Assembly: GCA_948567375.1 (NCBI GenBank)
Contig: OX419756.1
Location: 71,128,333 to 71,192,332 of the forward strand
Direction of reading: 5' to 3'
Source of the DNA: Lunularia cruciata
Lineage: Eukaryota > Streptophyta > Marchantiopsida > Lunulariales > Lunulariaceae
Length of the DNA stretch: 64,000 nt
In this document: positions 19,901-51,776 of the stretch, one piece after another
Numbering within the stretch: position 1 is the stretch's first letter
Layout: each line of letters begins with the position of its first letter
Made by a program: the position numbers and the translations under genes
The notes under the pieces: model-generated
What the model saw: the letters and a program-made list of their open reading frames with translations, nothing else
Database searches by the model: none
Told to the model about the DNA's origin: nothing

Positions 19901-20350
19901 AGTTGGAATTTTATGAATGACAAATCCTAAGAAAATGGTGTGTTTGATCTGTGACTAGCACCGAGGAAGTTCCATTTTAGGAGCTCTCATTCCGTCTATA
20001 TGAATGGTTTGGTTCAGTAGTCTGGGTGCCGTGTTGAGCCAAATAGAATACTATTTGTTGTTTGTGAAATTCCCAGCCATTCCTAGGGACCGTCAGGTCC
20101 GAAACCGTAGCAGAACCTGCTTGAACTAGCCAGTTCTGCGAAGGCCAAAGACAAACACAAACCCTCAAGAAGCCCAACATCAGGAAACAAAGGAAAACCC
20201 AAAATTTTACAGAGTTGAGATTTCCAACACACTAGGAATAGGAAGAGAATGATAGTCTATGAGAAACTCTAAATCAACTACAATAACGGCAAACTAAGCA
20301 CAAGCAGCTAGGTGCTCGGTGCACTCTCAAGGCCAACAAATTCCTTGACA
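16998..20350 (+). repeat. Family B 3' LTR (start uncertain)
   Basis: From 17841 on it matches 597-3039; its right end, CCTTGACA, is at 20350. The part 16998-17840 has no counterpart in the window but follows the polypurine tract, so it is probably the U3 start, absent from the left copy because a family A element cut it off. It could instead be 3' untranslated sequence, with the LTR starting at ~17840. Confidence 0.65.
17950..19590 (+). repeat. GA-rich minisatellite inside family B 3' LTR
   Basis: Same unit family as 720-2290 (about 78 bp, higher-order period near 0.5-0.6 kb), a little longer, with units shuffled relative to the 5' copy. Purine-rich on the plus strand. Confidence 0.9.
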
Positions 20351-20805
20351 ATGTCCTAGTGCAGGTGTGGTAGGTGGCAATGAAGTGCATGATGGACTAC
20401 CTACTAGTCAACTACCTGCTACTACATAGACTGAGTCAAGCACGATGTTGGGGGCGGTTCAGCTGATTATGCGGTGCCCTTTGTTTTTAGCCAATAACAT
20501 GTTTACATTGGAAGTTGACCCAACCCCAATGTTTTGATTGGTTGCCATACTTTGCGAGAGTAGAGATGATGTGGTTCCTACTACTAGAGCAGAGGTAGTT
20601 GGTAGTGGAGCTGACTTGGTTGAGGAGCATGAGATCCACTTAGCGACCAATGGTTTATGGTAGGCAGCAACGGCTAGACTAGAGGAGTTGCCAACTAGAC
20701 CGGCCTTTGAGAGAGCGTGGTTCACACTTGGTGTTGTCCTATTGGGATAACCAAAGGGGGATTTTCCATTTGGTGGGACCTTCAAGGAAGGTCTATACAC
20801 CATAG
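20351..20805 (+). pseudogene. Family C gag remnant
   Basis: Begins abruptly at the family B LTR end. On the reverse strand it matches 31068-31490, including the GTCCTAGTGCA start and the segment before the protease. Stop-rich; no zinc knuckle in this piece (the knuckle is retained in the minus-strand copy at ~32050). Known as gag only by position and by that match. Confidence 0.6.
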
Positions 20806-21495
20806 AGACTCTTGTTAGACTATGGTGCACAACCCCTTATGTTGGAGAAGACTGTAGTAGTCGATTTGTAGTTACAGAATACCGATGTTGAGAGGTGTCC
20901 ATTTTAGATCCAAACATCTCTAGGTGGTGGTTCAACACAATACATCACACGTGGGGGGCTTCTTGTCCAAGTTCAGCCTGGTCATCCGATTGATAGCTTG
21001 GTGGTGATAGCTCAAGCTATTGCGACAATAGCTGAGTCATATGATGTGTTAGTTGGTAGAGTAGTGTTATACTCCATGGATTTCAATATTGACTATTGGA
21101 AGGATACAACCTCTTATAGACCAGGTTGGCAGACTAGTGAGGGACGGGTATATTGCCTACTGGTATGCTGCAGTAGTGCCAATCTTGGCTCATTATAGCC
21201 CGGGACCATAGCAACATCAATTTTAGCCTTCAGTGGTGTAGTTACTTGGCTTGGTGACTTGTTGGAGAGGAACGCACATGCAAAGGATACTCCAGTACCA
21301 GAGGAGATCACCCGGATTTGGAGTACAAGTGGGATTGTTCCATCCACCTTGGATGTTCCATTGTGGAGTTCACAGGAGGCATTGTAGCAGCATGTAGATC
21401 AATTGGTGCAATAGGCTTGGAGTGGAGTCTTTGTACCATCAAGAGATGAGTGTGAGGATGAGCCTCCAAAGTCAATTACTTTGACACCTCTGGAT
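20806..21495 (+). pseudogene. Family C aspartic protease and linker
   Basis: LLDYGAQPLML places the protease active site (Asp codon 20818-20820; Asp-Tyr-Gly in place of Asp-Ser/Thr-Gly). The linker reads VLVGRVVLYSMDFNIDYWKD and YRPGWQTSEGR (~21040-21150), a conserved-looking segment I cannot assign, then leads in frame to the methyltransferase. The minus-strand copy has Asp-Phe-Gly at the same place (30566-30568). Confidence 0.7.
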
Positions 21496-22460
21496 ACCAC
21501 ACTCCTTGCTTGGTAGTATCCAATAGAGGAGATATGTCTATTGGAGTTGTTTGGTGAGATTAACATTGGACTAGCTACAATATTACATGCAGGTATATGA
21601 GTACAAAGGTACTTGTATGTAGAGAGAGATGAGACTGCTTGGCGAGTCTCTCTACATCATGTGGCACACTTGGCCTACCGGTATCTTGAGTTATTATTGA
21701 TGTCAGCAGTTAGAGGTTACTAGAAGGCTTTACTAGCATACATTTCCTTATTGGGGGCGCATGATCTAGAGCAACATGTGCCTATTCACTTGGTGATTTT
21801 TGGATGGCCATGTCAAGTACATACACGTGTTGGCCGGGGTTTTGGTCTTTAGGATCCTTGTTCTAGTGTGTTTTGGGAGATGTTACGGATATTACAACAT
21901 CTCTAGGTTCATCAGTCCATTTCTCTAGCTTACCTTTTGGAGAACGTTCCTTTGATGGGTGATTCTTGCACCAAAGTGCTGGCAAGTACACATCAAGTCC
22001 ATTCTTGGATGGGATTTATTGTATTGTTAGATGCATCCAAAGTAGGATCACGGGCTCATCGTCTTTGTCTTTACCCCAGAAGGTTCTATAGCGTGCATAT
22101 CATGGGATTCAACAACTAGACCATATCCCTTGTTAATGATATCTTGGATGTTGGGCTGCAGTCTCAGACAGTGGTAGTGGTTGATAGATCATCTATGGTA
22201 GTGGTGAACCTAGTTGGATAGCCTACAGTTGCATTTTCTACACTCATGAGTTTCCTAAGCTCTCGTGCTTTTTGAGAGGGAGGACTTGGACTTGTTTATA
22301 GCAATTGGTGGAGCCTAATGCCAATGAGAGAGAGCGGGCGATGGGTTTTTGCACCGGTATTACCGTTATTCTAGTAGTATTAGAGGCATCCATGCATTAG
22401 GTGTTAGGTCAGGCTATGGACTATTTGACCTGGATTATGAGCCTTGGTTTGGCAAAGCAG
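21496..22460 (+). pseudogene. Cytosine-5 DNA methyltransferase domain inside family C pol
   Basis: Transfers a methyl group from S-adenosylmethionine to C5 of cytosine in DNA. Visible motifs in order: I, LELFGEINIG (21541-21570, SAM binding); II-like acidic end of YLYVERD; IV, IFGWPCQ with Pro-Cys-Gln at 21808-21816 (catalytic Cys codon 21811-21813); VI, LENVPL with Glu-Asn-Val at 21940-21948; VIII, GSRAHR (22045-22062); IX-like NERERAMGF (22323-22349); X, GQAMD (22407-22421). Motifs I-VIII lie in one frame, with stops at 21598, 21721, 21850 and 21904 and a frame end at 22117-22119; IX-X lie one frameshift later. Only ~200 bp separate VIII from IX, so the target-recognition region is short and the whole domain is about 310 residues. 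It lies between protease and RT in the same orientation, so it is part of the element, not a host gene. Confidence 0.88.
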
Positions 22461-23039
22461 CGTAGGATGCGCTTGATAGGCATCACCACTCAAACACTTG
22501 TGAGCCTTGTGCCTATCAAGACAATTTAGGCACATGTTAGGGGCAATGGACCAAGTGGACAAGGTATTTTTGGGATATAGCCAGTAGCTACTAGGGAGAG
22601 TGGTCTACTTGGAGTCCATCCAAGTGAGCATATGCTACTTGGATTACACCCTTGGTCCACTTAGGATGCAACTAGAGGACGTGTGGAGCTTGCAGCCAAA
22701 GTAGAGGGAGTTTTTCACACTAAGGTTAGGACCTCTAGTGGTCAGGGCATGACACTACTACTCCCAAGGGCCCAATGAAGCAGCCAGTCAGTACGTCTTC
22801 CACTCCTACAACAGTTATAGAGGATACTTGGGAGCCAGATCTTGGACCTAAGCTTACTATGGAGGAAAGATGAAGATTTTGGAGGTCTTGAGGAGCTACA
22901 CAAGTTGTTTTGCCTTCAATATGAAGGCAAACTCTAAAGGGACCTAGTATATGGATTGAGCTAACTAGCAATACACAAGTTTTTTGATGTCCTTATTGCT
23001 ATAGTGACATGGAGAGGACATTGATTCAGAGCCGGAGTA
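22461..23039 (+). pseudogene. Linker between methyltransferase and RT of family C
   Basis: Stop-rich sequence in the direction of pol, with no recognisable domain. Probably a decayed inter-domain linker. Confidence 0.5.
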
Positions 23040-24240
23040 GAGACCTTTTTGAGGCTAGTTTGGTAGAGATCTCACATGGAGAGTATGCATCAACTATAGT
23101 GATGCCAGCCAAGAAGGATATGCATGGCAACTACACAAATAGGCAGATGTGTGGAGATTACCGTCCTATCAACTAATAGACTAGGGCTGATTGGTATGTC
23201 ATGCATACAACAAAGGAGATTTTTGATGCAATTGGGCATGCAAAGGTCTTTAGTACTTTGGATCTTTGAGTGGGATATAATCAATTGCTGATCTAGGAGA
23301 AGGATAAGTCCAAGATAGCATTTTAGGCTATTGATCCTCACTGCAAGGATGTGTTATATTAGTGGAGGTTCTTATCATTTGGGTTAAAGAATACTCTTGC
23401 TGAGTTCCAGAGGGTCATGGATAGGATCCTAGCTGGATTGGATTTTGCTCAATGCTATATTGATGACATTTTAGTCTATAGCACTATTGTGGAGGAGCAT
23501 GAGCTATAGCTATTGGAGGTGTTTGAGAGGTTGAGATCTCATGGACTCCATTACATCCTAGGAAGTGTAGATTCTTCTATGAGTAGGTTGAGTTTTTGGG
23601 TCACACTATCTACCCTAGAGGACTCAGTGTTTAGTAGACCAAGGTGGAGGCTATTTCATATATTCCTTGGCCTACAGATGTGAGCAGAGTGCAAGCATTC
23701 CTTGGGTTGGCAAACTTCTATTGCCGCTATGTTAGAGAATTTAGTGCTATTGCCAACGGTTTGACAAAGCTGACCAAGTTTGCACAAGTGTGGTGTTGGA
23801 GAGATGAGCAAGAGAGAGCTTTTGTAGAGCTCAAGGAGAGGTTGACATCTGCTCCTATTTTGAGGAGACCAATCAGAGGATGACCATTTCAAGTTCATAT
23901 TGATTAGATTATGTTAGGGCTTGGAGTAGTGCTCACCTAGCATGATGATGAGGTGAAGGAGTTTGTGGTCGCCTATGCTAGTCGCTCCAACAATTCAATA
24001 GAGGCAAAGTATAGTTCATATGAGAGAGAGTGCTTGGTAGCAGTTTTGGCAATAGCACATTTCTGATGTTACATATTTGGTAACCCCTTCACCCTCATCA
24101 CTGATCATCAGCCATTGAAGTGGTTGATGGAATCCGACAAGCTTTCACAAAAGCTTGCACGATGGGCTCTAATTTTATAAGAGTATGATTTCATGATTAT
24201 TTTATAGACTAGGAGTGAACCGTGATGCAGATGGGTTGAG
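23040..24240 (+). pseudogene. Family C reverse transcriptase and RNase H
   Basis: RT: IVMPAKKD...CGDYRPIN (~23095-23178), STLDL (~23260), FGLKNT-AEFQRVMD, and the catalytic YIDDILVYS (~23457-23483), then FLGLANFYCRYVREF (~23698-23745). RNase H follows with EFVVAYASRS, ERECL and LITDHQPLKWLM (to ~24135), then LARWAL. Several stops and frame changes. Standard Ty3 RT/RNase H. Confidence 0.85.
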
Positions 24241-25739
24241 TAGAAACCCATGTTCCAGCCAGCAAGATGAGACCGGAGCACGTTGGCATGGTGAGACAAA
24301 TGAGGAGATGGTGCCAGGTTGGCATGCATCAGCCTTTCTGTATATATTTTTTGAGGCTTTGGTGGTATCTCTCTCAATGCATACAAGAGGAGTTATTGAG
24401 GCCACATATCCAAAGAGTGAAGATATTGGTACATTCCAACAAGACATTCATGGTGATGTCATAGTGATGGACTATCTTTGCACTGGTGTTGTGGATGGCA
24501 TAGTTGGAGCCAAGGAGAGAGACCGTGTTCTTCAGTGAGCTAGACGGTTCAGATTGGAAGGCAAACACTTTTTGCATGTATGGGAGGATGGTAGAGTGAG
24601 AGTAGTAACACTTCCATCTTAGAGACTATAGTTAGTTTGTCATGCTCATGACGAGCTAGGACATTTTGGAGTAAAGCATACATATAGCTTACTCCAAAGT
24701 CACTATTGGTGGCACGGTATGCAAACCAAGGGACAATAGTTTGTTGCCAAATGTGTGGTTTTTGATTGAGTTAGAGCATCATTCAATGCTCCTACACCAC
24801 AATTACACCTATTACCTATCATGGGATTAGGTTACCGTTGGAGTTTAGATTTTGCCGGACCTTTACCGTTGATTGTGAGACATTATTGGTATGTTTTGGT
24901 GATGGTGGAGCACTTCTCCAAGTGGATTGAGTTGGTGGCACTTCCTGATAAGTCCAATGAAGGAATGGCTTACTCATTCCTAGATCAAGTTCTTAGTCAT
25001 TTTGGTGCACCAGTTGAGGTTTTGACTGATCAAGGTACAAAGTTCTTGGGGGAGTTTCAAGTCTTGTGTGACAAGGCTTTGATTGATCATTGTACCACAT
25101 CTCAAGATCACCCTAAGGCCGATGGCTTAGTAGAGAGAGTGGTTCAGACAGTCAAGAAAGGATTATGAAAGTATAGTTTGCAGAGAGGCCACTTGGGAGA
25201 TTTGGATCTCCAATTACCTTGGTTGGCCATGGGCTATCGGTTCAACCGACCAGCCTTCTTAGCATCCTTCTCTCCTTACTTTCTAATTTATGGACAAGAT
25301 CCAGATTTACCTGCAACCATTTGTCAAGATGCTACTGTAGTCTTGGACATGGATGATCCAGATGTATGGGTGAGCGCATGTTCTCACTAGGTAGAGATCT
25401 TTTGGAGAATGATGCCGATGGCCTTTGAGAACTTAGCAATTGCTCAGTATAGGGATACCTTACGTTATGCTACTACTCAAGGAGGAGGTTATACCCTTGA
25501 TCCGTTGATTTCATCCAAGTGACTATGTATATCTACAGCAAACAACACCAACAACATTTGATGTTTTGATAGGTTGCACTATCTTGAGAGTGCATGAGGT
25601 TTTGCCATCTGGAGTCCTTGTGTTAGAAGGACGTGATTGTGTTGTTTGTAAGGATTATGTGCACAATCTTGCACCATGCCACCTCCCAAACATTAATGGT
25701 GCTATGGACTCAAGCTTGACACTTGTAAGTGCAAGCTTG
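24241..25739 (+). pseudogene. Family C integrase
   Basis: Zinc domain His residues in HAHDELGHFGVKHTY (~24640-24685), then WWHGMQ and a Cys pair. The core ORF 24821-25168 has Asp in SLDFAGPLP, Asp in LTDQGTKF and Glu in DGLVERVVQ. The C-terminal part (25178-25390, then from ~25500) includes CTILRVHEVLPSGVLVLEGR and runs without interruption into the PHD finger in one frame (25566-25862). Confidence 0.87.
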
Positions 25740-25742
25740 AGG

Positions 25743-25877
25743 TGTATGTTATGTGGCTCTTTTGGTGGAGCTGTTACTATGTTAGTGTGTGATAGATGTT
25801 CGAGAGGATGGCATATAGCATGTATGACTCCTCCCCTCATAGTGGTTCCTCAAGGACAATAGATATGTCCTAGATGT
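25743..25877 (+). pseudogene. PHD finger fused to the C-terminus of family C integrase
   Basis: Cys/His order fits a PHD finger: C-x2-C (CMLC), then C-x2-C (VCDRC), W-H-x2-C (GWHIAC), then ICPRC as the last pair. The Trp expected just before ICPRC is replaced by an in-frame TAG at 25860-25862 (TGG to TAG is one step). PHD fingers commonly read histone H3 tails, so it could play the targeting role a chromodomain plays in chromoviruses; that is inference. It shares a frame with the integrase tail, so it is a true fusion. Confidence 0.82.
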
Positions 25878-26040
25878 ATTTGACCTATAGCTAGTTCATT
25901 CTTTATATGGTATAGATTGCACACAGGCGACTAACAATGGGGCTCTATAGCACCCGGCCTCTTGATCTTTGCCCATCATAGGGTATGTCATATACTTGGA
26001 GAAGATGGCTAGTTGGAGTTAGAGAGACCTAACCGCCAGC

Positions 26041-26053
26041 TAGGGGAGGTGGT
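26041..26053 (+). other. Probable family C polypurine tract
   Basis: TAGGGGAGGTGGT immediately precedes TGTGGCAC, the apparent LTR start. Confidence 0.55.
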
Positions 26054-26611
26054 TGTGGCACTTTAGAGTTTATGTATGACTTATGTGGGAGTTGTGCTTC
26101 TATAGTGTATGATGTTGACAGTGATGTATGTTGTGTAGCAATATATATATGCACGACAGCTGTCACACCATTTTTAGTGTTGCATCTAGATTGCTTGGAC
26201 ATTGGAGTTCCAGTGATAGTAGTTAGAGGAATTTTGGCCGTTACTCATAGACAACTTTCCGATGGTCAGATTTTGTGTTTAGGGTATTGACTTCATGGTG
26301 GAGCATACTGTCACTTGCACCATCTACACCGTCAAGTGTTCCATCAGCAAGACCATTGGGATGAGATCTAGGTCAAAATCAAGAGTATACCCTAGAAATA
26401 CACCTCCAAAGAGCTCACTTCTCTAATGTTGAGCCTTTGAGTTCTTGGCTAGAGTGGACAAAAAGCCGGTGAGCATCACCTGGAGTCTCTTAGGTAGAGT
26501 GGGTGTGGCTTGATTGTAATCAATGCCTTGTTGTTAGCAAGTTGTTGCAGATTAGATCAAGTATTGATTTGAGATTGATTGATTTGAGTTGTAAATGATC
26601 TGATTATTTGG
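26054..26611 (+). repeat. Family C 3' LTR
   Basis: Starts TGTGGCACTTTAGAG after the polypurine tract. The start block (~105 bp, ending CACGACA) recurs at 26612-26709 and 30337-30440. The rest (~26225-26605) recurs at 29963-30336 and, reversed, at ~40800-41228. The right boundary is uncertain because a second LTR start follows directly. Confidence 0.65.
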
Positions 26612-26709
26612 CACTTTAGAGTTTATGTATGGCTTATGTGAGTTGTATTTTTATAGTGTATGATGTTGACAATAATGTATGTTATGTAGTGATGCATATA
26701 CGCACGACA
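26612..26709 (+). repeat. Second, interrupted family C LTR (start block)
   Basis: Repeats the first ~100 bp of 26054-26158 and stops at CACGACA, where family A protease sequence begins. The remainder of this LTR seems to resume at ~29956. Confidence 0.55.
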
Positions 26710-29700
26710 AGGTTGATGAAGAAGTTGGGTATGATATCTTCAAGACCTTCAACATTTGTGGTGAGCATGGCAAACAAGCAACAAGTTTGACAAGTAGGGG
26801 TGATGGATAAAGTGGCAATTTTAGTTACGGGAGTTCAAATCTCATGACTTTCCAAGTCTTGAAGGATTCAAGCTATGATTTAATTCTTGGGAGGCCATGG
26901 TTGAGAGCAACACTCACAACTAATCAATGGCACAAAAGGCATTTGAGGATTGGGCCATCAAACCATAGAGTCACAATTCTTGTGACTAACACCACCAACA
27001 CTTCACATTCAGATACTTCATCTTCTGATTATTGAGAATCAGATCCTGATGAAGGAGCTTTAGGTGTGGACACAAGCATGGAAGAGGAGACTTCTATTGA
27101 GGAAGATGAATCTAAATCTGACTCTGATTTAGATGTATATCCCTTGTGTGCTATGGATTTTGCACCTAAGCCATAGGTTTTGAAGGACCCAAATAAATCA
27201 CCATTGACACTTGAGGAGATAGAGAGGAGATTATCTACACTCAAGTATGGTCCAAGTGTTACCAAGGATGAGAAGATGAGATTTGGGGAGATTTTCCGCA
27301 AGTTCATTCATGTGTTTGCTTTTAGTTACAAGGAATTGAAGGAAGTCACCTTGGAGGAGCACAAGATAGAGGTGAAGTCACATGCAAGACCAATCCACCA
27401 AAAGCAATGTTGCATTAGCCCACCAATATCTTTGGTTGTGAAGGAGGAGATTGATAAGCTCAAGGAGGCGGATTTATCTTTGAGGTAGAGAATTCAGAAT
27501 GGGTGTCTCTAATTGTCATTATGAAGAAAAAGAATGGCAAGCTTTGGGTATGTGTGGATTACAAGAAGCTCAACGCTATTACCAAGAAGGACTACTACCC
27601 ATTACCCATTGCATTCATTGATGAGATGTTAGAGGAGGTTGCAGGTCATGAGAGGTACAATTTTGGAGATGGTTATAGTGGATACAACCAAATCAAGATT
27701 GCACCAGAGCATCAACAACTCACCACATTCACCACACCTTAGAGAACTTACGCTTTCAAGGTCATGCATTTTGGGCTTTGCAATGCTCTAGCCACATTCC
27801 AACGGTTCATGAACAAGGTACTTGAACCTTTCATTGGGAAATTTGTGAGAGACTTCATTGATGACTTTTGTGTCTATGGGAGCAAAGAGGAGCACTTTGA
27901 GCCCCTAATCAAGGTCTTGCAATGCTTGGATGAGGCAAATGCATCACTCAACCCCAAGAAGTGCATTTTTGGATGTGAAGAAGGTCTACTTTTGGGGCAC
28001 ATCATCTCCAAGGATAGAATATAAATTGATCCTAAGAAGGTGAGGAAAATCTCAAACCTTCTATTCTCTTCAAGCTTGATAAAGTTACGACAATTCTTGG
28101 GGATGGTTGGGTTCTATAGGAGGTTCATATTCTCATTTTCCATCAAGGTTTATGCATTGACTATCTACATGAAGAAGGGTGTAGATTACATGGTGATTTT
28201 GGAAGACAAGGAGGCTCTCAAAGCTTTTGAGGACCTCAAGCAATCCCTTGTTGTAGCTCCAATTCTTGCTCAACTTGATTGGAGTAAGCTTTTCATCCTC
28301 TACACTGATGCTTCTAATGAAGCTTAGGATGTACTCTTAGTCAATTAGACCAATATGGGTATAATCATCCAATATCTTATGCTAGTAGGCCAATAGTTTC
28401 AGCAGAGAAGAACTACTCTATCACAAAGAGAAAATGGTTGCCAGTGATCTTTGGTCTCAAGAAGTTTAGACACTGCTTTACTGGAGGGAAAGCCACCATT
28501 GTCACAGATCACAAGGCTTTGAAGTACATCTTCAACAAGCCTAATCTGGAAGGGAGACTAGCAAGGTGGATGATACTCTTGTTTGAGTATGACTACACCA
28601 TTGAGGATAGGCCAGGAAAGAAACATGCAAATGCAGATTTGTTATATAGAGCCTATGATCATGATGGAGATGAGCCACTAGATAATTCCTTCCCAGATGA
28701 GGAGCTCATAACAATCTCATTCACTCAAGAGGTTACAATGGAGTACAAGGAGATTGTGGATTTTGTGACAAGAGGTAACTATCCAGAAGGGGTGCATGCT
28801 AGGGAGAAGAAGGCCCTTGTAGCAAGATCTAGACCTTATACAATGGTGGAGGATATTCTTTTTCACCAAGGAGCAGATGGTCTACTTCGTAGAGTAGTGG
28901 GTAAGGAAGAGTCTATCCTACTCATAAAGGAGTTTCATGAAGGTTTAGTATATGGAGGACACTTTGTAAGAAAGGTGACTACTTTCAAGATTTTAGATGC
29001 AGATTACCATTGGAGAGTGATTTTCAAGGATTTTCTTGATTATTGCAAAACTTGTCATGTTTGTCAAGTTTTTGTTGGAAAGTCTACATCCACTACACCA
29101 GTTAGATCAATTCCATTGCTAGGACCTTTTGAGAAGTGTGGAATTGATTTTGTAGGTCCTCTCAATAGAACCCCAAGGAACAATCGGTACATTGTGATAG
29201 TTAGTGATTACCTTACTAAGTGGGTTGAGGCTAGACCATTGAGGGACAAGAATGAAAATGAAGTTGGTAGATTTCTTTATGAACTTATTATCATTAGGTT
29301 TGGATGCCTTTTGGAGTTGGTTCTTGATAAAGGAGAGGAGTTTACAAGAAGCATCACTATAGCCATGCTACAATATTTCTCTATCACACATAGAGTAACT
29401 ACATCCTATAAGCCAAATTCCAATGGCTTGGCAGAAAGAGCCAATGAGACCTTGTGCATGATATTGGCTATAGATGCAGAAATGGAAGGGGCTAAACATC
29501 ATTGGGACAAGAGGATTCATGCAATTTTGTGGGAGTATAAGACAACCATGAAGACTTCTACTAGATATTCTCCATTTCAATTGGTATATGGTTTTCAGTC
29601 TACCCTACCTATTCACTTTGATCTTCCTACCTTCCAAAGCATTCATAGGAGATTGAAGAAAGCACAAGGAGGTGATGCAGAGAAGTCAAGGAAGGAACAA

Positions 29701-29950
29701 CTCATGAAGTTGGAAGAGGCAAGAGCAGTTGCTATGGTTTGAGTGGAGCAAGCCCAAAGGAAACAAAAGGAGAGCTATGACAAGAGGCAAAGCAAGAAGA
29801 AGGTGGAGCCTTTGAAAGAAGGTGATCGGGTAATGTTGTTTGACTCCATTCAATTCAAGAGAGTACAAAAGAAATTTTTGCCTAAGTACTTTGGACCTTT
29901 CATGGTGAAGAAGGTGTGGGGCAATTACACCTATGATCTCAAGGAGTTAC
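26709..29950 (+). pseudogene. Family A protease-to-integrase fragment without LTRs
   Basis: Aligns with 7340-10568 of the full family A element, starting in the protease just after its active site and ending in the integrase C-terminus. Neither LTR, gag nor polypurine tract is present. Nucleotide similarity is high, with scattered stops (near 27034, 27174, 27486, 27742, 28023, 28324, 29740) and small indels. At the site homologous to 8492 it keeps the T missing from the full element, showing that the break there is specific to the younger copy. RT, RNase H and all integrase motifs are readable. Ends are not element ends, so it arrived by recombination or a chimeric template, not simple transposition. 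Confidence 0.9.
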
Positions 29951-30440
29951 TTAAGGAGTTAGCAGTCACTCATAGACTACTTTCTGATGGTCAGATTTTG
30001 TGTTTGGGGTATTGACTTCATGGTAAGGCCTACCATCACTTTGCAATGTTTGCACCATTGGGTGTGTTATTAGCAGGACCGTTAGGGTTTTAGACCTAGC
30101 TCAAGTCCATGGGTATACTTTTAAAGTGCATCTTTGGAGAGTTTACTTCTTTGATGTTGACCCTTCAAGTTCTTGGCTATGGTGGATAGAGGTTGGCAAG
30201 CATCATATGGATTCTCTTAGCTAGAACGTGTGTAGCTTGACTATAATTAGTGCACAATTGTTGGTAGTTTATAGAGTGACAAATCAAGTATTGATCTGAG
30301 TTGAGTTGATTTGAGTGATGTAAACAAACTGATTATTGTGGCACTTTAGAGTCTATGTATGACTTACGTGTGAGTTATGTATCTATAATGTATGATGTTG
30401 ATAGTGATGTACATTGTGTAATGATGTATATACGCATGAC
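29951..30440 (+). repeat. Family C LTR remainder plus a third LTR start block
   Basis: 29963-30336 matches ~26230-26610; 30337-30440 matches the LTR start block (TGTGGCAC...CATGACA). Together with 26054-26709 this forms a tandem series of family C LTRs with a family A fragment inside the second. No coding sequence. Confidence 0.65.
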
Positions 30441-30599
30441 ATGTATTATATATAACCATCTCCTAAAGATGTTTGGATCTAAAATGGATATCTTTCCACA
30501 TTGGTCCTTCATACTTCAAGCCAAACAATTGTAGCTTTCTCCAACATAAGGGACTATATACCAAAGTCTAATAAAACCCTATGTGGTATGCAGACCTTT
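30441..30599 (-). pseudogene. Family C protease, minus-strand copy (truncated)
   Basis: On the reverse strand this matches 20806-20930, including the protease active-site region (Asp-Phe-Gly, Asp codon at 30566-30568). It is cut at 30440 by a plus-strand LTR block, so the methyltransferase part of this copy is absent. Confidence 0.7.
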
Positions 30600-30690
30600 T
30601 GTAACAATATAGAATTGACCAACAAGTTAGTCAAGACCAACTATGTAGCAAATAGCCCAAATTAGCCTAGAATATTCTAGAAGCATCTAG

Positions 30691-30930
30691 GAAGCTTCTT
30701 GGTACCTTCCAAGTATTGGGTAATGTGCATGCCAAGTGATGAATCATAAGAGGAAGCTTCTTGGGAAGCTTCTTGGCTAGCTTAGCTTACACACCAAGTA
30801 GACAGTTTCTAGAAGGAAACTTCTTGAAGAAGCTAACCGGGACCGCTTCTTGAGAAGCTTCTTGTTTAGTTTGACTTCCACTCTAAGAAATCAAATTTGA
30901 GGAAGCTTCTGGAGAAGCTTCTCAAGAGCC
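30691..30930 (+). promoter_or_regulatory. Cluster of heat-shock-element-like sites
   Basis: Heat-shock factors bind alternating GAA/TTC triplets with two-base spacing. GAAACTTCTTGAA at 30816-30828 is a perfect three-unit site; GAAGCTTC cores occur near 30691, 30753, 30765, 30854, 30902 and 30914. They stand 20-250 bp upstream of the TATA box. That heat drives this LTR is inference from motif content, in analogy with known heat-responsive plant LTRs. Confidence 0.55.
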
Positions 30931-30943
30931 TTGTATACCTCCC

Positions 30944-30951
30944 TATAAATA
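30944..30951 (+). promoter_or_regulatory. TATA box of the solo LTR
   Basis: TATAAATA in the context CCCTATAAATACC, placed after the heat-shock-like cluster and ~115 bp before the LTR end. Confidence 0.6.
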
Positions 30952-31067
30952 CCAAAGCCCAAGCTCATGCTAGGCATTTGGAATTTTCCTCATTCAAGAG
31001 TTCCAATGTGAGCTTTTACCTTCATCTTCCATCCTCCTATTTCTCTCTTTGATCTTGGTCGTTTGCA

Positions 31068-32344
31068 CCTTCCCTAAAGGTCCCACCAAAAATAAAATGT
31101 CACTCTATTTATCCAATAGGACAACTCCAAGTGTGAATTGAGCTTGCTCAATAGCAAATCTAGATGGTAACTCCTCTAACCTAACTATTATTGCCTATTA
31201 TAAACCATTGGTTGATGAACTATCCTATGCTCAACCAAGTAAGCTCTACTACCAACCACCTTTGCTCTAAAAGCAAGAGACCCATCCTCCCTAATATTAC
31301 AAAGTGTGCCAACAAACTAGAACACTGGAATTGGATCAACTCCCAATGTAACCATGTCACTAGTTGAGCACAAAGAGAAGCACATGATCAATTGAGCTAC
31401 TCCTAACATTGTGCTAGACTCAATTTGTGTAATAGAAAGTGGATGACTAGTATTTAGTCCATCTTTCACTCCATTACTTCATACCACATGTGCACTAGGA
31501 CGTTTAGGAGGTATGTATGTTGTTTGTAGTGCTTTAGAGAATGTGAAAAACTAAGGAGCTCTAACTTATCCACCAGCTTCTCTTCTCTATGGGTCCAACT
31601 CCAATGATGCTCCTCTGGGCTTTGAAGTACATGCCACAATCTTAGTTACTATAGCAATATTGCCTATGTTGTTCTACATGTAAAGTCCAAGATATCTCTA
31701 TCACAAACATAAGAGGTTGTAGTTAAAGCACCTAAATCTGATCTCCTTTGAGATATGGCCATGCTAGCTAATCTTTACTCCAATTGCTTAATTTGAATAG
31801 TCATTTTTGTATTGGAAGCAAGTGTAGGTATTGGGCTCCTACTAGGTGTAGGTCCTCTACTACCACCTTGTCTTCCATGACCTGGAGCTCCTCTATCACT
31901 TGCCATAACAACCTTACCACTCTGTAACTCCGGATGAAGGTCAAAGCATTGGTCATTAGTTTGACCAAATCTATGGCTATGGTCACATTTTCTATATGTT
32001 GGTTGTGATGCACCATAGGTATCATGCACATTGCCTTAAGTGCACTCTCTCTTGTGATGAGGTCCACCACAAGTCCAACAAGCAATACCACCACTCATTA
32101 GTTGCTACTGACCCAAAAATGAAAGTAAGGGTCTAGTTGCACTAGGCCCTCCACTCACTCCATAAGATCTAGGTTTTCCACTCCACCCTTGGAAGCCAAC
32201 ATGGTGTGGTGTACTCTGTTACACTCTAGATGAAGTAACAACTATGATGAGGTTTCCGTACTAACTCTAGATGTCACCATTCTCTCTTTCATATTGAGCT
32301 CAATGCACTAAGCCAAACTAAAGACCACCACCAATGTAGGTGAG
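31068..32344 (-). pseudogene. Family C gag with zinc knuckle, minus-strand copy (3' part)
   Basis: Reverse-strand match to 20351-20800 at its left end. Further right, on the minus strand, it reads CWTCGGPHHKREC (a C-x2-C-x4-H-x4-C knuckle, ~32035-32075) followed by a stop and a second Cys/His stretch (YRKCDHSHRFG). A Gly/Arg/Pro-rich tail follows (31775-31930). Interrupted at 32344 by the chromovirus LTR; its upstream part continues beyond 38582. Confidence 0.65.
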
Positions 32345-32940
32345 TGTAATATTATAAGGATAAGAGAACCCACAAGAGAAACACAATAGAAGAAACACAA
32401 AGTTTCACACTCATTACTCCAATGCCCCAAAGGAGCACCTTGTTGTTATTATATAGCAAAGAGGATTCTCTCAAGGGAAGCTCCACCCTTGGATCAGATA
32501 TATGGAGTAGTAACATGTCAACAAGCTCCACCTTTAGTTCAGATACATGCATGGATGACATGTTGGTTCTTGTCCTATCTAGTTGGTCAAACAAGTTTAA
32601 CTAGAGGGAATCTTTAGAGAATCTTCTTGTAAAAAGCTCACAATCATATGGATGAGGTACCATTGGAAAGCTCTCAACAAGATAACAATGTGGAAAGAAG
32701 GTATGCCTATTTTCCCAAAGGGAGGAGAAATCTTACCATTTTTGAGGCCTACTTCCTTTGTTTAGGCCTCCAAAATTGACTCAAGTTTTCATGGTGTTTT
32801 TGGCTCCTACCTTATTAGTAGAATTACTCTTTTGGTGACACCTCTATTCAATCTACTTAATCCATTATATATAACATCATGCTAGATATTACCAAGCTAA
32901 CTTTTATCTCTAGATAATATGTCTAGCTAATGGTATTACA
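32345..32940 (-). repeat. Chromovirus 3' LTR
   Basis: 596 bp with inverted ends (TGTAATA...TATTACA). Similar to 36960-37554 and 37979-38581. The adjoining AAAAGAAGGG run on the minus strand (32941-32960) serves as polypurine tract. Confidence 0.8.
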
Positions 32941-32953
32941 AATATCCCTTCTT

Positions 32954-33172
32954 TTAAGATGCAACATCTTCATTGCAAAGTTGTTGCTCAAAAGATTGCA
33001 TTAACACCAATGCATGGTTGGTTGCTAGCTCCCATGTTGCCTCATATAGTGGGTATCCTTTCCAATGTACAAGATATTGTACACACGAATGGCGGGCACA
33101 ACAAATGCATCTTTGGAGAATGTGTTCAACCTCATATTCCATCGTGCCATCAATGATTTTGGACAAGGTCAA
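32954..33172 (-). pseudogene. Chromodomain at the integrase C-terminus
   Basis: The 72-residue frame contains YEVEHILQR, then YLVHWKGYP and ATWELA, the strand and helix signatures of a chromodomain. Chromodomains of chromoviruses bind methylated histone tails and steer integration to heterochromatin. It joins the decayed integrase upstream (to the right). Confidence 0.88.
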
Positions 33173-34510
33173 ATTTCTTGTATGGAAGGAAAGTGGAGTA
33201 GCTAGGATAGATATCTACCTAGTAAGGAAACATGGAACAATAGATGGATCTTCATGTGTGGCGGTAGCTTGAGGTGATAGGCCATTGTATTGATTTTCCA
33301 AAGGATGGGAAAAGGCCCAATAAAACAAGGTCTGAGCTTACAAGTGCCAACTAACATGAGGTTGGTTGTGGACAGCTAGACTTGATTCCTATTAGTGAAC
33401 TCCATGTGCCAGAAATGTGCATCTACATACTATTTTTGTTAATTTTGGATGTTCTACAACTTGTGTTTAGTCTTCTCTACTCTTTGTTAGATTCTAGAAA
33501 CAAAATTGTTGACAACATCAACCTTGGTAGCCACCAGGTGGATCTTCATCAAGCTCAAAGGTGTGAAAAGATGCTTTTCATACATGCGGACAAATAGTAT
33601 GACCTATGTGGATGCATTCACTAAATTGTTGTAGGTAAATTCTACCAATGGAAGTAAGTTGTCCTACCTCTCTTGCTCGTCTAAGGTGAAGCCCTGGAAC
33701 ATGTCTTCAATAGTGCAATTAGCCTGGTCTGTTTGTCCATTGGTCTATGGATAGTAAGCCATAGGTATGGCCAATTTGGTTTTGAAGATGCCAAAGAGTT
33801 TTCTCCAAAACAAACTAGTGAATTGAATTGCCTCTATTGGTGATGAGCACTTGAGGTAGGCCATGGTGAGAAAAGACTGCATCTATGTACAATTGAGCTA
33901 ATTATGGAGTAGCCATGTCATTGGTGGTAAGATGCACATGAATCATTTTGCTAAGTTGATTGAAAAAGACTACATGGAGTCAAATCTTGAGGTGGTCTTG
34001 GGCAATTCACAACCAAGTCTATGCTTACCTATTCCCAAGGTTATGTAAGAATAGCAAGGAGTTGAAGAAGTCTTGTGGGACCTTAATTAGAAGCTTTATT
34101 GTGTTGATAGAGTAGGTAGTTTTGAACATATTCCATCAAATTGTTGCTCATCTTTGGCCAATAGTAATGGCATTTCATTTCATCTAAGGTCTTGTTTATT
34201 CCAATGTGACCTGCAATGGAAAAATTCATAACATTTTGCTAGGATGGTAGTTCTTATGTCTATGCATTTAGATCCATAACTTGCCATCACAAAAGGTGAT
34301 TCCTTGGGTATTGATGATGCCTTTAGATGAATTTTTAGATGAATAGATAAATACAATCTATGGATTAGTTTTTGTAGCAACAAAAATCCTTGGCCAGAAT
34401 TTTTGGTTCATCTTGATCTCTACCACCAAATTGTTTGCCATAGGCATTTGGGTGTATGCATCTGCAAGTTGCTTCTTCCCTTCCACATATGTGATTGTCA
34501 TGTTGAACCG
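33173..34510 (-). pseudogene. Chromovirus integrase
   Basis: Stop-rich minus-strand sequence. HYYWPKM and the Cys pair of the zinc domain lie near 34110-34190, and PWE-VS-D of the catalytic core near 34020. The frame is broken many times. Identified mainly by order between RNase H and chromodomain. Confidence 0.65.
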
Positions 34511-35500
34511 CTATGTTGCTCTACCCACCAAATCTATTGATGAGATAAAAAAAAATTTCTTGAGATAGACTAGAGGTTTGTGGTCTATCTCCACTACAAG
34601 TGCCTTCTTGCCAAGATAGTGCTTCCAATGTTTGGTTGCAAGAACAATGGTCAACTCTTCTTGTTTTGTGTTGAGATAGTTGCATTCAACTAGTAACAAT
34701 TTTTGAGAGAAATATGCAATAGGGTACCATCTATCATGCCATTCTTCTTGTAGGATTGCTCTTATTGCTACACTTGATGCATCTATAGATAACTTGATTG
34801 GAGGTTTTAAATCATACCATTTCAAGATTGGTGCATGTAGTAATATGTCTTTCAATTCTTGAAAGGCCAACTCTTGTGCAATTCTCTTCATCCACTTCTT
34901 CCCCTTTCCGAGTAGTGTTGTTAGAGGTTGTGCAACCTTGAAAAAGTCCTTGAAAATTTGACAATCAAACCCCATCAATCCTAAATATTTATTGAGTTGA
35001 GATTGATCTTTTGGAGCACCCCATTTTTGAATGACATTTATTTTATTTTTTAACACTTGGATACCTTTTCCACTTACTCTATGCCATAAGTAGTCTACTT
35101 TAGATTTTCCAAACTTGCACTTTGAAATTTTGGCATAAAATTTTTTCACTAAATTTGGAGAACTTTTCACAAATGATAACTATGCTCCATCATCTTCCTA
35201 TTGTAGAGTAAGATTTCATTCTAGGAAAATGATACTAGATTTATCCAAGTATGGAAAAAACATATCATTCATCAAATTCATAAAAGTGACTAGTGCGTTG
35301 GTGAGACCAAACGGCGTCACCAGGAACTCAAAGTGATTATACCTTGTTTAAAAGGTTATTTTGTATATATCTTCCTCTGCAATCTTGATTTGGTTGTAAT
35401 TTCTACGCAGATCAAGTTTGGTGAAGTGTTTTTGCTGAAATGAGTTGATTGAATAGATCATTCATGTAGGGTAAAGGATATTTTTTCTTCACCATTTGTT
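34511..35500 (-). pseudogene. Chromovirus reverse transcriptase and RNase H
   Basis: The 34511-35170 frame (219 residues) covers the RT thumb (FGKSKVDYLWHRVSGKGIQV, NKYLGLMGF) and RNase H (LSIDASSVAIRAIL, YFSQKL, VEIDHKPLVYL). Upstream to ~35500 the palm is readable in pieces: FTKLDLR-NYNQI and TPFGLTNA. The catalytic YxDD region (around 35180-35220) is not clearly preserved. Confidence 0.82.
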
Positions 35501-36959
35501 GATTTAGGCCCTAATAGTCAATGCATATACAAATTGTACCATCCTTCTTCTTCACAAACAAGATAGGAGCTCCCGTATGGTGATATGTTGGGTTGGATAA
35601 ACCATATTTATAGTATATCCTTGATTTGATCCTAACACTCCTCTAACTCATGAGACAATTGTCAATATGAGGTCTTACACGAGGTATCTTCCCATGAAAT
35701 ATCTTGATTTTATGATCTACTTTCCTTTTTGGTGTTAATCCTCAGGGTAAGTCATTTGGGAAAGACTTCTTGAAACTCATTGACCACATCTTTAAATTTA
35801 TAAATAATTTCCCATCTAGTTGTGCACTCTAGACTTCTCTTATTAGGCCCATGAAATATCTATCTTATAGATAGTTGTTGTCCCTATAATATAGAGAGGC
35901 AATTCCTACCTATGTGATCTTTCTTTAACCCGTATGATATTCCATTAGCAAGTTTTCACTACTTTCTTTCTCCAATTAACCATGGGATTTTAATGCTCCA
36001 TCCATGACATGCTTAAGATTACATTATAATGAGTGAACCGTATCACTTGCCACTCAATCTCTTCATAACACTCTCCTATAGAGAGTATTACCTTTTCATG
36101 TAACAACTCAATCTTCTTTGTTTGGCCATTTGGTAACTCTACTTATTTATTTTCATCCTTCTCTAGATCCATCTCCAACCTTATTGCAACAGAGCAAACT
36201 CAAGAAATTCTCTATTGCTCTAAGGTCTATCAATACTCTCATCTGATTGCCTTTTAGGATTCAATTCAAGATAATCAATTGTGATTTTGTTTTCCTCAAC
36301 CTTTGCACACTCTCCTCATCCCCTCCTCTTACCTTTTTTTTCTCTTATCCATTGAGCCAATAAGGCCACAAGGTACATTAACTAGAAATCTTTGTTTTCC
36401 AATGTGATTTCCGCATTCTTCTCTTCAAATTGTCTCTCCATTGGCATGAGTGATTCTCTAGGTACTTCAGCCATTGATATTGGGTTTTGGGATGGTTCTT
36501 CTTCTTGCATTTCTTGATTGTTCCTGAAGGTACGCACTTGACTTTACAATGCCTCCATGATCATCTTATCTCCCAAAACTCATTCAAAATCCCCTAGATT
36601 CCTTGTATCAAATCTTGCAACTATAAATCCATGATTCTTACACACCATAAACACTTCCTATTTCAATAGAGATTTAATATGATCACTCAAGAGAGTGAAT
36701 GCACTTTTGAGACTACCATTGGGACTTTAGAGATTATCACTTGTTGATAATATTCTTCACCAAAATTATGAATTATAAAAACCCTAAATATCACTTTTGA
36801 TCTAATAATATAATGGATTTCTACTTGAGTGTTGAAAGGGACAGGATTGGATATATTTAGATCTATTGTATCATAAGAAAATGTAGATTTTTAAATTCCA
36901 CTCTCTATTATATATCACCACATGTAGAATCACCAGGTTTGTGAATTCATCACTATATC
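35501..36959 (-). pseudogene. Chromovirus gag/protease region
   Basis: Mostly unreadable. QMRVLIDLRAIENFLS (~36200-36245, minus strand) is a protease active site with Asp-Leu-Arg where Asp-Ser/Thr-Gly is expected, so it is inactive. A Glu/Lys-rich stretch at 36290-36520 may be the end of gag. Confidence 0.55.
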
Positions 36960-37709
36960 CATGAATTATAATCTTTTAAGGATAGAGACCTTAAGAGATA
37001 TAAAAGAAAAAACACAAAGTTTCACACTCAATATTTTGATGCTCCAAATGAGCACCTTATCTTTATTATATAGCAAAGAGGATCTCTCGAAAGGAAGCTC
37101 TACCCTTGGATCATCTATATGGATTGGTGACATGGCAATGAGCTCTACCCTTAGATTAGTTGCATGCATGGGTGACATGTTGGTTTTGGTCATATTTGGT
37201 TAGTCAAACAAGCTTTGATTGGACAGAATCTTTAAAGAATATTCTTATATGAATCTTAGAATTGCATGGGTGAGGTACTATTGGAAAATTCTTAACAAGA
37301 CAAGTAGGAGGGAGAGAAGGCCAACCTTTTCTTTCCCTATGGGAGAACTGGCATATTTTCCAAGTCTAGTTCATCTGTTTAGGCCTCTGAAATTGGCTCT
37401 AAAGTTTGACTATTTTTTATTCTTACCTTATTATTAGAAGTACTCTTTTGGTGAAACTTTGATCTAATCTACCTAGTCTATTATCTATAACATCTTTCTA
37501 GATATTACCAATCCAATTTTCATCTCTAGATAATGTCTAGATATTGATATTACATTTCTAGGCTATTTTCAACTCCTACTCTATTAGTAGAAGTACTTTT
37601 TTGGTGACACCTCTATCTGATCTACCTAGCCCATCATACCTAACATCCTTCTAGATGTTACCAAGCCAATTTTCATATAAAGATGATATGTTTAGTTACT
37701 AGTATTACA
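36960..37709 (-). repeat. Extra chromovirus LTR (36960-37554) and LTR fragment (37555-37709)
   Basis: The first is a whole LTR related to 32345-32940. The second repeats only the outer ~150 bp, ending TATTACA at 37709. They sit between the protease region and the PBS, so they are a secondary insertion or the remains of unequal recombination between elements. The 36960 copy has no recognisable PBS beside it. Confidence 0.7.
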
Positions 37710-37960
37710 TGAACTCTACTCCAAAGTTGTAAACAAGATATACTCTCACTTAATCACATTATATGTACATAATCTTGATATAAGCTAGATTCAAGAACAA
37801 AAAGTGGGGTGCATAAAATTCTCTTCTAGGAGCCTCCATCCCATCTCCTCTCTAAAACACTCTTAATCTATCAATTGCACTATGGTTTCTCCCTTGAAAT
37901 TATACAGTCTCAATAGTCCATGTTCCTTTGAGAGGGGTGATCCACTCTCTTGGATTGAAA
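37710..37960 (-). other. Chromovirus leader remnant
   Basis: About 250 bp between the LTR fragment and the PBS, with no ORF of note. Expected 5' untranslated leader. Confidence 0.45.
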
Positions 37961-37977
37961 CCGAAGCTCTAATACCA
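37961..37977 (-). other. Chromovirus primer binding site
   Basis: On the minus strand TGGTATTAGAGCTTCGG, differing by one or two bases from the initiator methionine tRNA complement typical of plant LTR elements. It adjoins the LTR at 37979 and fixes that copy as the 5' LTR. Confidence 0.85.
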
Positions 37978-37978
37978 T

Positions 37979-38581
37979 TTTAATATTCTAAGGATAGGAG
38001 AACACTCAAGAGAAACACAAGAGAAGAAACATAAAGCTTCACACGCAATACTCTAGTGTCCCAAAGGAGCACATTGTCTTTATTATATAGCAAATAAGAT
38101 TTTCTCAAAGGAAGCTCCACCCTTGGATCAAACACATGGATTAGTGATATGTCAAAAAGCTCCACCCTTAGATCAGATATATGGATGGGTTGTATGTTGA
38201 TTCTTTTCCTATATATCTTGACAAGAGAGAATCTTTAGAGAATCTTCTTGGGTGAATATATACAAATAGATGCTTAGAATCACATGGGTGAGGTATTGTT
38301 GGAAAGCTCTCAATGAGTTGAATAGTTGGGAGGAGAGGAGGAGAATGCAAACCTTTTGTCTTGAAGGGGTGGAATCTCTCCACTTTCAAGGCCTAATCCT
38401 CCATTTAAGTCTCCAAAATTGATTGAAGTTTTGTGTGTTTTCAACTCTTGCACTATTAGCAAAAGTATTCTTTTGGTGACAAATCTATTTGATCTACTCA
38501 GTCCATCATATATAACATCCTTCTAGAACATACCAATCCAAATTTCACCTCTGGATAATATTTCTAGCTAATGATATTACA
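37979..38581 (-). repeat. Chromovirus 5' LTR
   Basis: 603 bp, similar to the other two copies, with the PBS on its inner side and gag of family C on its outer side. Confidence 0.8.
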
Positions 38582-40799: not shown

Positions 40800-41228
40800 C
40801 ACTTAAATCATACTCAAATTGGATCTGATTTTGATCCTTAACTCAAAAATCTACCAAAAATTGTGCACTGAATATAGTCAAGCCACACCCACTCTAGCTA
40901 AGTGACTCCTAATGAAGCTTGTTGGCCTTTGTCCACCATAGCTAGGAACTCAAAGGTACAACATCAAAGAAGTGAGCTCTCTAAAGCTACACTTTGAAAA
41001 TATACTCCTCTGCTCACCCTAGGTCTCTAGCCCTAACGGTGTTATTGATGGTGCAAATGGGTGTAAGTGAAAATGGGTCTTACCATGAGATCAACAACCC
41101 TAACATAAAATTTGGCCGCAATCAAGTGATCCATGAGCAACTACTTAAATAACTATGAGTGCAAACACTACCATTCCAAAGTCCATGCAAACTAGCTTTG
41201 GTGCTACAAATGTTGTGACAATCAACTT
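40800..41228 (-). repeat. Family C LTR, minus orientation (partial)
   Basis: The reverse complement matches 26160-26530 and 29963-30250, including the block around a CTCATGGTAAGA-like site and GGTGTGGCTTGA. It is the 5' LTR of the minus-strand copy. Both ends are degraded. Confidence 0.65.

Positions 41229-51701: not shown

Positions 51702-51776
<75 letters not shown>

What the first reader, a model, noticed from the sequence alone, without database searches (positions are those of the whole stretch)
21496..22460. Ty3/gypsy element encoding a cytosine-5 DNA methyltransferase between protease and RT
Seen: motifs I (LELFGEINIG), IV (GWPCQ, catalytic Cys at 21811), VI (LENV), VIII (SRAHR), IX (RERAMGF) and X (GQAMD) in the right order and spacing, flanked by a Ty3 protease (20818) and RT (23040-23483) in the same orientation. 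Known: these motifs define C5-MTases; retrotransposon-borne MTases have been described in a few eukaryote lineages, but standard plant Ty3 elements lack one. Inference: the element methylated its own or host DNA, perhaps to hide copies or to maintain a mark its PHD tail or host readers recognise. The very short target-recognition region suggests loose specificity.
Basis: partly seen in the sequence, partly recalled or inferred. Interest (0 to 1): 0.93.

Follow-up and report, generated by a model that had tools for sequence, protein, structure and literature searches.

The report
Retrotransposon carrying its own DNA methyltransferase
A jumping gene in a probably moss- or liverwort-like plant carries its own enzyme for putting methyl marks on DNA; the copy in this window is dead, but its family is abundant in the same genome and resembles one already described from a green alga.

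Summary
Window 21511-22472 encodes a decayed DNMT3-type cytosine methyltransferase between the protease and reverse transcriptase of a Ty3/gypsy element (20341-26710). This copy is dead: about ten in-frame stops and a frame change in the methyltransferase alone. It is not a one-off. The host genome (566 Mb, unnamed) holds 3,396 places matching the catalytic motif within 2 mismatches (control 0), against 4,223 for an RT motif. Of the 90 methyltransferase matches scored, 90 reach E<=1.1e-182 and 50 are stop-free. Of 20 copies picked by RT alone, 20 have the motif at the expected offset. Relatives (48-74% identity) occur in Marchantia, Calypogeia and Sphagnum. Copies read gag-protease-DNMT, UAG, then RT-RNaseH-integrase-PHD in the same frame. 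Their repeats run A-coding-B-A-B as in DIRS elements, yet with retroviral-type ends, a DDE integrase and 4-bp target duplications. Klebsormidium nitens Gypsy-Dnmt3 (PMC5890265) is the precedent: same domain, superfamily and repeat plan. So this is a new, probably land-plant, member of a known kind, with a chromatin-reader tail and likely readthrough control. Enzyme activity and purpose are inferred.

The parts
20341..26710 (+). Element C1: the part of one DNMT-bearing Ty3 copy that lies in the window up to its first tail repeat; 5' side cut by element B
   Evidence: 86-87% identity to host copy L031/L032 over this span; B LTR ends at 20350
20355..20816 (+). C-terminal gag/linker remnant
   Evidence: tblastn with ORF1 of L031, 67% identity, 4 stops
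20746..21258 (+). Aspartic protease and following linker (decayed; LLDYGAQ where relatives have LLDSGAQ)
   Evidence: tblastn 75% to L031 ORF1, 4 stops; collinear with P0041
21511..22472 (+). DNMT3-type C5-cytosine methyltransferase domain, decayed (motifs I-VIII frame +1, IX-X frame +3)
   Evidence: Cys codon 21811
22778..22780 (+). Codon AAG at the ORF1/ORF2 boundary where 30 of 30 aligned host copies have TAG
22781..23491 (+). Reverse transcriptase (decayed, 10 stops)
   Evidence: intact equivalent RVT_1 E=8.7e-20
23551..25492 (+). RT end, RNase H, H2C2 and DDE integrase core (15 stops in two frames)
   Evidence: intact equivalent RT_RNaseH 1.6e-36, Integrase_H2C2 7e-18, rve 2.3e-12
25743..25877 (+). 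PHD finger at the integrase C-terminus
   Evidence: PF00628 E=1.1e-6 in the window, 5.2e-11 in host copy; coordinates
26053..26158 (+). Repeat B1
   Evidence: 92% to B of L032
26161..26606 (+). Repeat A2
   Evidence: 77% to A1 of L031
26609..26710 (+). Repeat B2
   Evidence: 88% to B of L032
29960..30441 (+). Further A-B unit, read as the end of a tandem tail split by an A-family fragment at about 26710-29948
   Evidence: 80.9% to A-B of L032; a tandem tail is seen in host copy L048; the reading is inference
30435..41220 (-). Older inverted copy C2, in pieces: A 41220-40727, gag 40169-38584 and 32343-31067, protease 30598-30435; no methyltransferase part in the window
   Evidence: 69-75% identity

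Best explanation
The segment is the dead methyltransferase domain of one copy of an abundant Ty3/gypsy family with the order gag-protease-DNMT, UAG, RT-RNase H-integrase-PHD. SHOWN (sequence): domains and order; the in-frame UAG; A-coding-B-A-B repeats with TGTCAC...ACGACA ends and 4-bp target duplications; the DNMT in every RT-picked copy tested; relatives in Marchantia, Calypogeia and Sphagnum. INFERRED: since the DNMT lies before the UAG it is made in Gag-like amounts and packed in the particle, while RT-integrase-PHD come only from occasional readthrough. The DNMT methylates the new double-stranded cDNA, or the fresh insertion, de novo. The PHD finger tethers the integrase to histone H3 tails. 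New copies would arrive methylated in tolerated chromatin, which spares the host and lets the family multiply. Identity and anatomy about 0.97; catalytic activity in intact copies about 0.7; action on its own cDNA about 0.4. The confidence below is for identity and anatomy together with a working DNMT.
For: Homologues E=2.3e-76, 400 at E<=1e-6 of 8,000 scored. DNMT3 is the nearest solved class: profile DNMT3A 8.4e-20, DNMT3B 3e-17, 4onj 'DNA methyltransferase' 3.5e-8, DRM2 4.5e-6, HaeIII 3.7e-5, HhaI 4.7e-5, tRNA methylase/DNMT2 7e-3; single host copy DNMT3A 1.1e-10, HaeIII 9.1e-4, DRM2 7.5e-3. Catalytic Cys in 50 of 53, Glu of ENV in 55 of 59, Asn in 59 of 59 aligned relatives. Host: 90 of 90 scored matches E<=1.1e-182, 50 stop-free; motif IV pattern 3,396 places, control 0. 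20 of 20 RT-picked copies have motif IV in place, Cys in 20 of 20. TAG in 30 of 30 and TAG-CAR-YYA in 29 of 30. Split repeats: tail in 10 of 10, 5' A in 9 of 10; 4-bp duplications in 8 of 8 read. PHD nearest solved chains include CHD4, KMT2D, KDM5, PHF21A and ATXR5. Retrotransposon DNMTs can methylate CG de novo (PMC5890265, abstract and discussion).
Against: No activity, expression or methylation data. pN/pS in the DNMT is 0.32 among 30 copies chosen by DNMT match but 0.66 over 43 codons in 20 RT-chosen copies, so recent constraint is weakly supported. The RT motif is commoner than the DNMT motif (4,223 against 3,396), so DNMT-less or related copies may exist. Elements without a DNMT (family A, identical LTRs) also multiply in this genome. 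PMC5890265 notes that non-DNMT elements thrive in the same hosts and that the tested SymbioLINE enzyme did not methylate DNA in yeast.
Confidence: 0.7

Rival explanations
1. A one-off insertion of a host methyltransferase gene or pseudogene into an unrelated retrotransposon.
For: The window itself holds one such copy.
Against: 90 of 90 scored genome matches, 20 of 20 RT-picked copies, 3,396 motif places, and protease-DNMT fusions in Sphagnum, Calypogeia and Marchantia proteins.
Confidence: 0.01
2. The DNMT domain no longer methylates DNA; it is kept as a structural or nucleic-acid-binding part of the Gag polyprotein, or acts on RNA.
For: pN/pS only 0.66 in the RT-picked sample; SymbioLINE-Dnmt was inactive on DNA in yeast and an RNA role was suggested (PMC5890265 discussion).
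Against: Catalytic residues are kept across distant branches and Cys in 20 of 20 RT-picked copies; the nearest solved class is DNMT3, with DNMT2 far behind.
Confidence: 0.2
3. The enzyme is active but acts in trans on host chromatin, or mainly helps the host to silence the element (self-restraint), rather than on cDNA.
For: Copies show excess C/T differences at CG (0.044) and CHG (0.034) against CHH (0.013), a footprint of methylated DNA; the family is still young and abundant.
Against: The footprint fits ordinary host methylation equally well and does not tell who wrote it.
Confidence: 0.25
4. The DNMT was taken from a bacterium or virus rather than from a eukaryotic DNMT3.
For: One relative, P0068, is named from a bacterial metagenome bin.
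Against: DNMT3A beats the best bacterial chain by about 15 orders of magnitude in the profile search; scans of viral contigs and prokaryote genome contigs confirmed 0 relatives among 16 and 20 pattern matches; P0068 groups with unnamed sequences such as P0074 that carry a protease.
Confidence: 0.05

Closest known systems
KnitGypsy-Dnmt3 of the charophyte Klebsormidium nitens (PMC5890265, section 9 read)
   Same: Gypsy-type domains, an intronless Dnmt3-type DNMT in the polyprotein, and DIRS-like A-coding-B-A-B repeats.
   Different: Its sequence could not be obtained, so common descent is untested. The sections read place the DNMT in the Pol ORF and do not mention a PHD finger, a UAG boundary or target duplications; the figure itself was not seen. 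Reported there as few copies; here thousands of motif places.
SymbioDIRS-Dnmt3 of Symbiodinium (PMC5890265, section 6 read)
   Same: A Dnmt3-type DNMT in a retrotransposon with split repeats.
   Different: That element uses a tyrosine recombinase; this one has H2C2 and rve integrase domains, TG...CA ends and 4-bp duplications.
Animal DNMT3A/3B
   Same: Motif order I-IV-VI-VIII-IX-X and nearest solved sequences.
   Different: GWPCQ in place of GSPCN in motif IV; Pfam found no PWWP or ADD-like domain in the four pieces scanned.
Chromoviruses (Ty3 elements with a chromodomain after the integrase; recalled)
   Same: A chromatin-reader domain at the integrase C-terminus.

Membership tests
DNMT3-class C5-methyltransferase | Motifs I, IV (PC), VI (ENV), VIII, IX, X in unrearranged order | tested here: met
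   Host copy L032: ELFGG at residue 95, GWPCQ 181, LENV 226, SRAHR 263, WWTNL 271, DERERAMGF 364, LGQAMD 391 (counted from 1)
DNMT3-class C5-methyltransferase | Closer to DNMT3 than to DNMT1, DNMT2, DRM or bacterial enzymes | tested here: met
   (solved chains only; no DNMT1 or CMT chain among the 51 listed at E<=0.01)
DNMT3-class C5-methyltransferase | Placed inside the DNMT3 clade in a tree | not tested
   No cellular DNMT sequences were fetched; the tree holds only this family
DNMT3-class C5-methyltransferase | De novo DNA methylation activity | not testable with these tools
   Needs an experiment
Ty3/gypsy retrotransposon | Order protease, RT, RNase H, DDE integrase | tested here: met
   the protease rests on its DSGAQ motif and homologues, since Pfam gave 0 families for the gag-protease piece
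Ty3/gypsy retrotransposon | Two identical LTRs at the ends | tested here: not met
   A at the 5' end, B-A-B at the 3' end
Ty3/gypsy retrotransposon | Short fixed target duplication and TG...CA ends | tested here: met
   8 of 8 copies read by eye
DIRS-type retrotransposon | Split direct repeats A-coding-B-A-B | tested here: met
   tail in 10 of 10, 5' A in 9 of 10
DIRS-type retrotransposon | Tyrosine recombinase and no target duplication | tested here: not met
   No phage-integrase domain in the four pieces scanned; 4-bp duplications
KnitGypsy-Dnmt3 lineage | Dnmt3 in a Gypsy polyprotein with DIRS-like repeats | tested here: met
KnitGypsy-Dnmt3 lineage | Common descent of the captured DNMT and the element | not testable with these tools
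   No K. nitens sequence obtained; none of the listed hits is named Klebsormidium (one search listed 120 of 400)

The most novel reading that the evidence does not exclude
One ancient capture, older than the split of Klebsormidium from land plants, founded a lineage of hybrid retrotransposons (Ty3 enzymes and DDE integrase with DIRS-like split repeats) that still multiplies in bryophytes. It carries a matched writer and reader: a de novo DNMT made with Gag, and a PHD finger on the integrase, so that each new copy is methylated in the particle and delivered to chosen chromatin.
Probability: 0.3. Interest if true: 0.82.

Novelty: new member of a known kind. Interest (0 to 1): 0.6.

Why it matters
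Retrotransposons are usually the targets of DNA methylation; here a probably land-plant family carries the enzyme itself and has become abundant. The genome offers thousands of related places, many young copies with open frames, a DNMT-free Ty3 element with identical LTRs in the same window as a control, and relatives in the model plant Marchantia polymorpha. The question left open in 2018, why an element would carry a DNMT, becomes directly testable. The pairing of a DDE integrase with DIRS-like split repeats also bears on how such repeats are copied and inserted.

Tried and rejected
One-off capture: rejected. A reassigned TAG codon, suggested by 12 TAG, 1 TGA and 0 TAA in frame +1 of 20746-22272: rejected, because the 910- and 714-residue stop-to-stop frames of the A element by definition hold no TAG, and among 76 in-frame stops in 30 copies 35 trace to CAG. 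Viral or prokaryotic relatives: none confirmed. Within-copy likeness of A1 and A2 as a sign of template-made repeats: weak (A 98.9% within, 98.3% between, own partner best in 4 of 8; B 98.95% and 98.7%, own partner best in 1 of 8). Purifying selection from copy polymorphism: inconclusive. P0038 as bait for Klebsormidium-like sequences: 20 hits including itself, none with an organism name. Structure prediction failed and was then off, so no fold comparison was made.

Full report
WHAT IS IN THE WINDOW. Frame +1 from 21511 carries C5-methyltransferase motifs I to VIII and frame +3 carries IX and X, with the catalytic Cys codon at 21811. The profile hit in the window itself is marginal because of decay (PF00145, E=0.001, 19 bits against a cut-off of 22). 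The homology is not: with stops as X, 38 proteins reach E<=0.1 of 680 candidates, the best 2.3e-76 at 56% identity over the whole query. A profile of 14 of them finds 400 proteins at E<=1e-6 of 8,000 scored, of which 120 were listed. PF00145 is met by 10 of 10 scanned relatives.

THE ELEMENT. tblastn with relatives shows a collinear run of protease, linker and methyltransferase from 20746 to 22709. BLAST with a host copy shows 86-87% identity over 20341-26710. The window copy (C1) is cut on its 5' side by the right LTR of another element, B (598-3039 and 17842-20350, 93.5%). It is dead: 4 stops in the protease piece, 10 in each of the two overlapping methyltransferase frames as aligned, 10 in RT, 15 in RNase H-integrase and 2 in the integrase tail-PHD piece. 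It appears to be nested in an older inverted copy, C2 (inference from the break at 30435-30441).

THE FAMILY IN THE HOST. The window lies in a 565,766,749-base genome of 74 contigs; eight contigs of 60-85 Mb sum to about 558 Mb (lengths). A protein search scored the best 90 of 14,025 first-look candidates: 90 of 90 match at E<=1.1e-182 and 50 have no stop in the matched part. First-look numbers are not copy counts. Exact-pattern counts, each with up to 2 mismatches and 0 in the reversed-pattern control, are: motif IV of the methyltransferase 3,396 (1,675 forward, 1,721 reverse); RT catalytic motif 4,223 (2,132 and 2,091); start of repeat A 3,357 (1,647 and 1,710). A complete element has two A repeats but one DNMT, so many of the counted copies are not complete or have drifted in A. 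The RT motif being about a quarter commoner than the DNMT motif may mean related or truncated copies without a DNMT, or only a more conserved motif; this was not resolved.

IS THE METHYLTRANSFERASE ALWAYS THERE? Copies were picked by RT alone (best 150 of 35,653 first-look candidates scored, all 97% or more identical; by my count of the printed table 128 of 150 have no stop in the RT match). Going down that ranking and leaving out copies already in the methyltransferase list, 20 of the 150 were tested by reading 150 bases where motif IV should be. 20 of 20 have it, at 93.9-100% identity, with the Cys codon in 20 of 20. One has a stop in place of the Trp before PCQ, two a stop further on, and one Arg for Gly before WPCQ. 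Only top-ranked, young copies were tested.

READING FRAMES. In copy L031/L032 ORF1 is 1,428 residues stop to stop (911 + 517 in the two loci: gag with CCHC-like knuckles, protease, methyltransferase) and ends in TAG. ORF2 follows in the same frame (RT, RNase H, H2C2, integrase core, PHD), with one further stop in this copy. Pfam gave no family for the gag-protease piece; these two rest on motifs and homologues. Some rows list a 1,037-residue ORF2; no copy is singled out here. TAG is present at the boundary in 30 of 30 aligned copies, and 29 of 30 continue CAR-YYA, a leaky-stop context known from tobamoviruses (recalled). Relatives P0006, P0011, P0027, P0058, P0068, P0074, P0105 and P0115 also end within roughly 60-160 residues after motif X, which suggests the same boundary elsewhere. 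Readthrough itself is inferred.

ENDS AND REPEATS. Ten copies were fetched with 8 kb on each side of a point at or near the start of the match. The tail B-A-B is seen in 10 of 10 (expanded to three A units in one) and the 5' copy of A in 9 of 10: A about 450 bp, B about 108 bp. In 8 of 8 copies read by eye the element begins TGTCAC, ends ACGACA and is flanked by a perfect 4-bp duplication (ACTT, CATA, ACTC, AAGG, GAGA, TAGA, GTGC, GAGC); the dinucleotide between B1 and A2 is GC in 7 of 8 and CC in 1. The other two copies were not read. This is the DIRS-type split-repeat plan with retroviral-type integration. PMC5890265 gives the same pairing for K. [quoted passage not shown] B1-GC-A2 forms the palindrome GACAGCTGTC, which looks like two unprocessed ends joined, and a purine-rich stretch lies just before B1 (AGGGGGGCG in 7 of 8). 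I read these as signs of a circular or end-joined replication step; that is inference.

CLASS OF THE METHYLTRANSFERASE. The 59-protein profile hits DNMT3A (8.4e-20), DNMT3B (3e-17), 4onj listed as 'DNA methyltransferase' (3.5e-8), DRM2 (4.5e-6), HaeIII (3.7e-5), HhaI (4.7e-5) and the tRNA methylase/DNMT2 (7e-3) among solved chains. A single host copy gives the same leader (DNMT3A 1.1e-10). Motif order is unrearranged, unlike DRM. In a tree of 55 rows the two host copies and the window copy form one group (SH-aLRT 99) inside a 23-row clade (99) that holds all 11 rows named as Marchantia, Calypogeia or Sphagnum; the other rows have no plant name. Identities of the host copy to those 11 run from 48% to 74% over 116-351 residues. 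The host is therefore probably a bryophyte, but no tool names it.

FOOTPRINT OF METHYLATION. Among 30 copies, unpolarised C/T and G/A differences are commoner in CG (0.044) and CHG (0.034) than CHH (0.013) contexts; transversions run at 0.008. Of 76 in-frame stops in those copies 35 are CAG to TAG. The matched frame has 26 CAG and no CAA codons, which itself explains part of the lack of TAA among the 54 stops of the 90 copies (45 TAG, 9 TGA). So the host probably methylates these copies in CG and CHG contexts; this does not show that the element's enzyme does it.

SELECTION. In the 30 DNMT-selected copies pN/pS is 0.32 for the DNMT, 0.27 for its tail, 0.32 for the protease region, 0.45 for RT and 0.63 for gag. 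That choice favours conserved DNMTs. In the 20 RT-selected copies it is 0.66 over 43 codons. Conservation of catalytic residues between distant branches (Cys 50 of 53, Glu 55 of 59, Asn 59 of 59) is the better argument for function.

WHAT IS KNOWN. PMC5890265 (abstract, sections 6, 9 and 11 and passages seen) reports Dnmt3 in a K. nitens Gypsy element under purifying selection, Dnmt3 in Symbiodinium DIRS elements, another DNMT in LINEs, and de novo CG methylation by retrotransposon DNMTs. Its main text mentions bryophytes once, for sequences that cluster with the cellular Dnmt3, and Marchantia or moss 0 times. PMC12344493 (passages) repeats the streptophyte and dinoflagellate cases. Passages of PMC8616336, PMC10952607, PMC6453930 and PMC3286476 add nothing on retroelement DNMTs in bryophytes. 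Ten paper searches brought no report of this family in land plants or of an integrase PHD finger together with a DNMT; the library lacks most subscription papers and all preprints, and supplements were not seen.

VERDICT. Real, well supported in anatomy, and an extension of a known phenomenon rather than a new kind. The interest lies in the probable land-plant host, the abundance with open frames, the DNMT placed before a UAG, the PHD tail, and the pairing of split repeats with a DDE integrase.

Noticed in passing
window 3556-4234 and 10679-11357: LTRs of a Ty3 element without a DNMT (frames 5796-8528 and 8486-10630) are 100% identical over 679 bp: a very recent insertion.
   Followed up: no
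window 598-3039 and 17842-20350: Element B has about 2.5-kb LTRs built largely of diverged tandem units and is inserted in C1.
   Followed up: no
window 26710-29948: A piece of A-family coding sequence (93% to 7340-10569) without the A-family LTRs, lying inside the repeat tail of C1.
   Followed up: partly
P0145 (metagenome protein): A 415-residue protein joins the C-terminal half of a related DNMT to an H2C2 integrase domain with no RT between, so another domain order seems to exist elsewhere.
   Followed up: no
window 51704-51775: A perfect 72-bp palindrome by self-BLAST.
   Followed up: no
window 58279-59254 and 61994-63007; ORF 60205-59600 (-): A diverged repeat pair (78%) around a reverse-strand frame that looks like a non-LTR reverse transcriptase by eye.
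   Followed up: no
G000 DNMT frame: 26 Gln codons are CAG and none CAA in the matched frame of L008, a strong bias in an element whose CAG codons decay to TAG.
   Followed up: no
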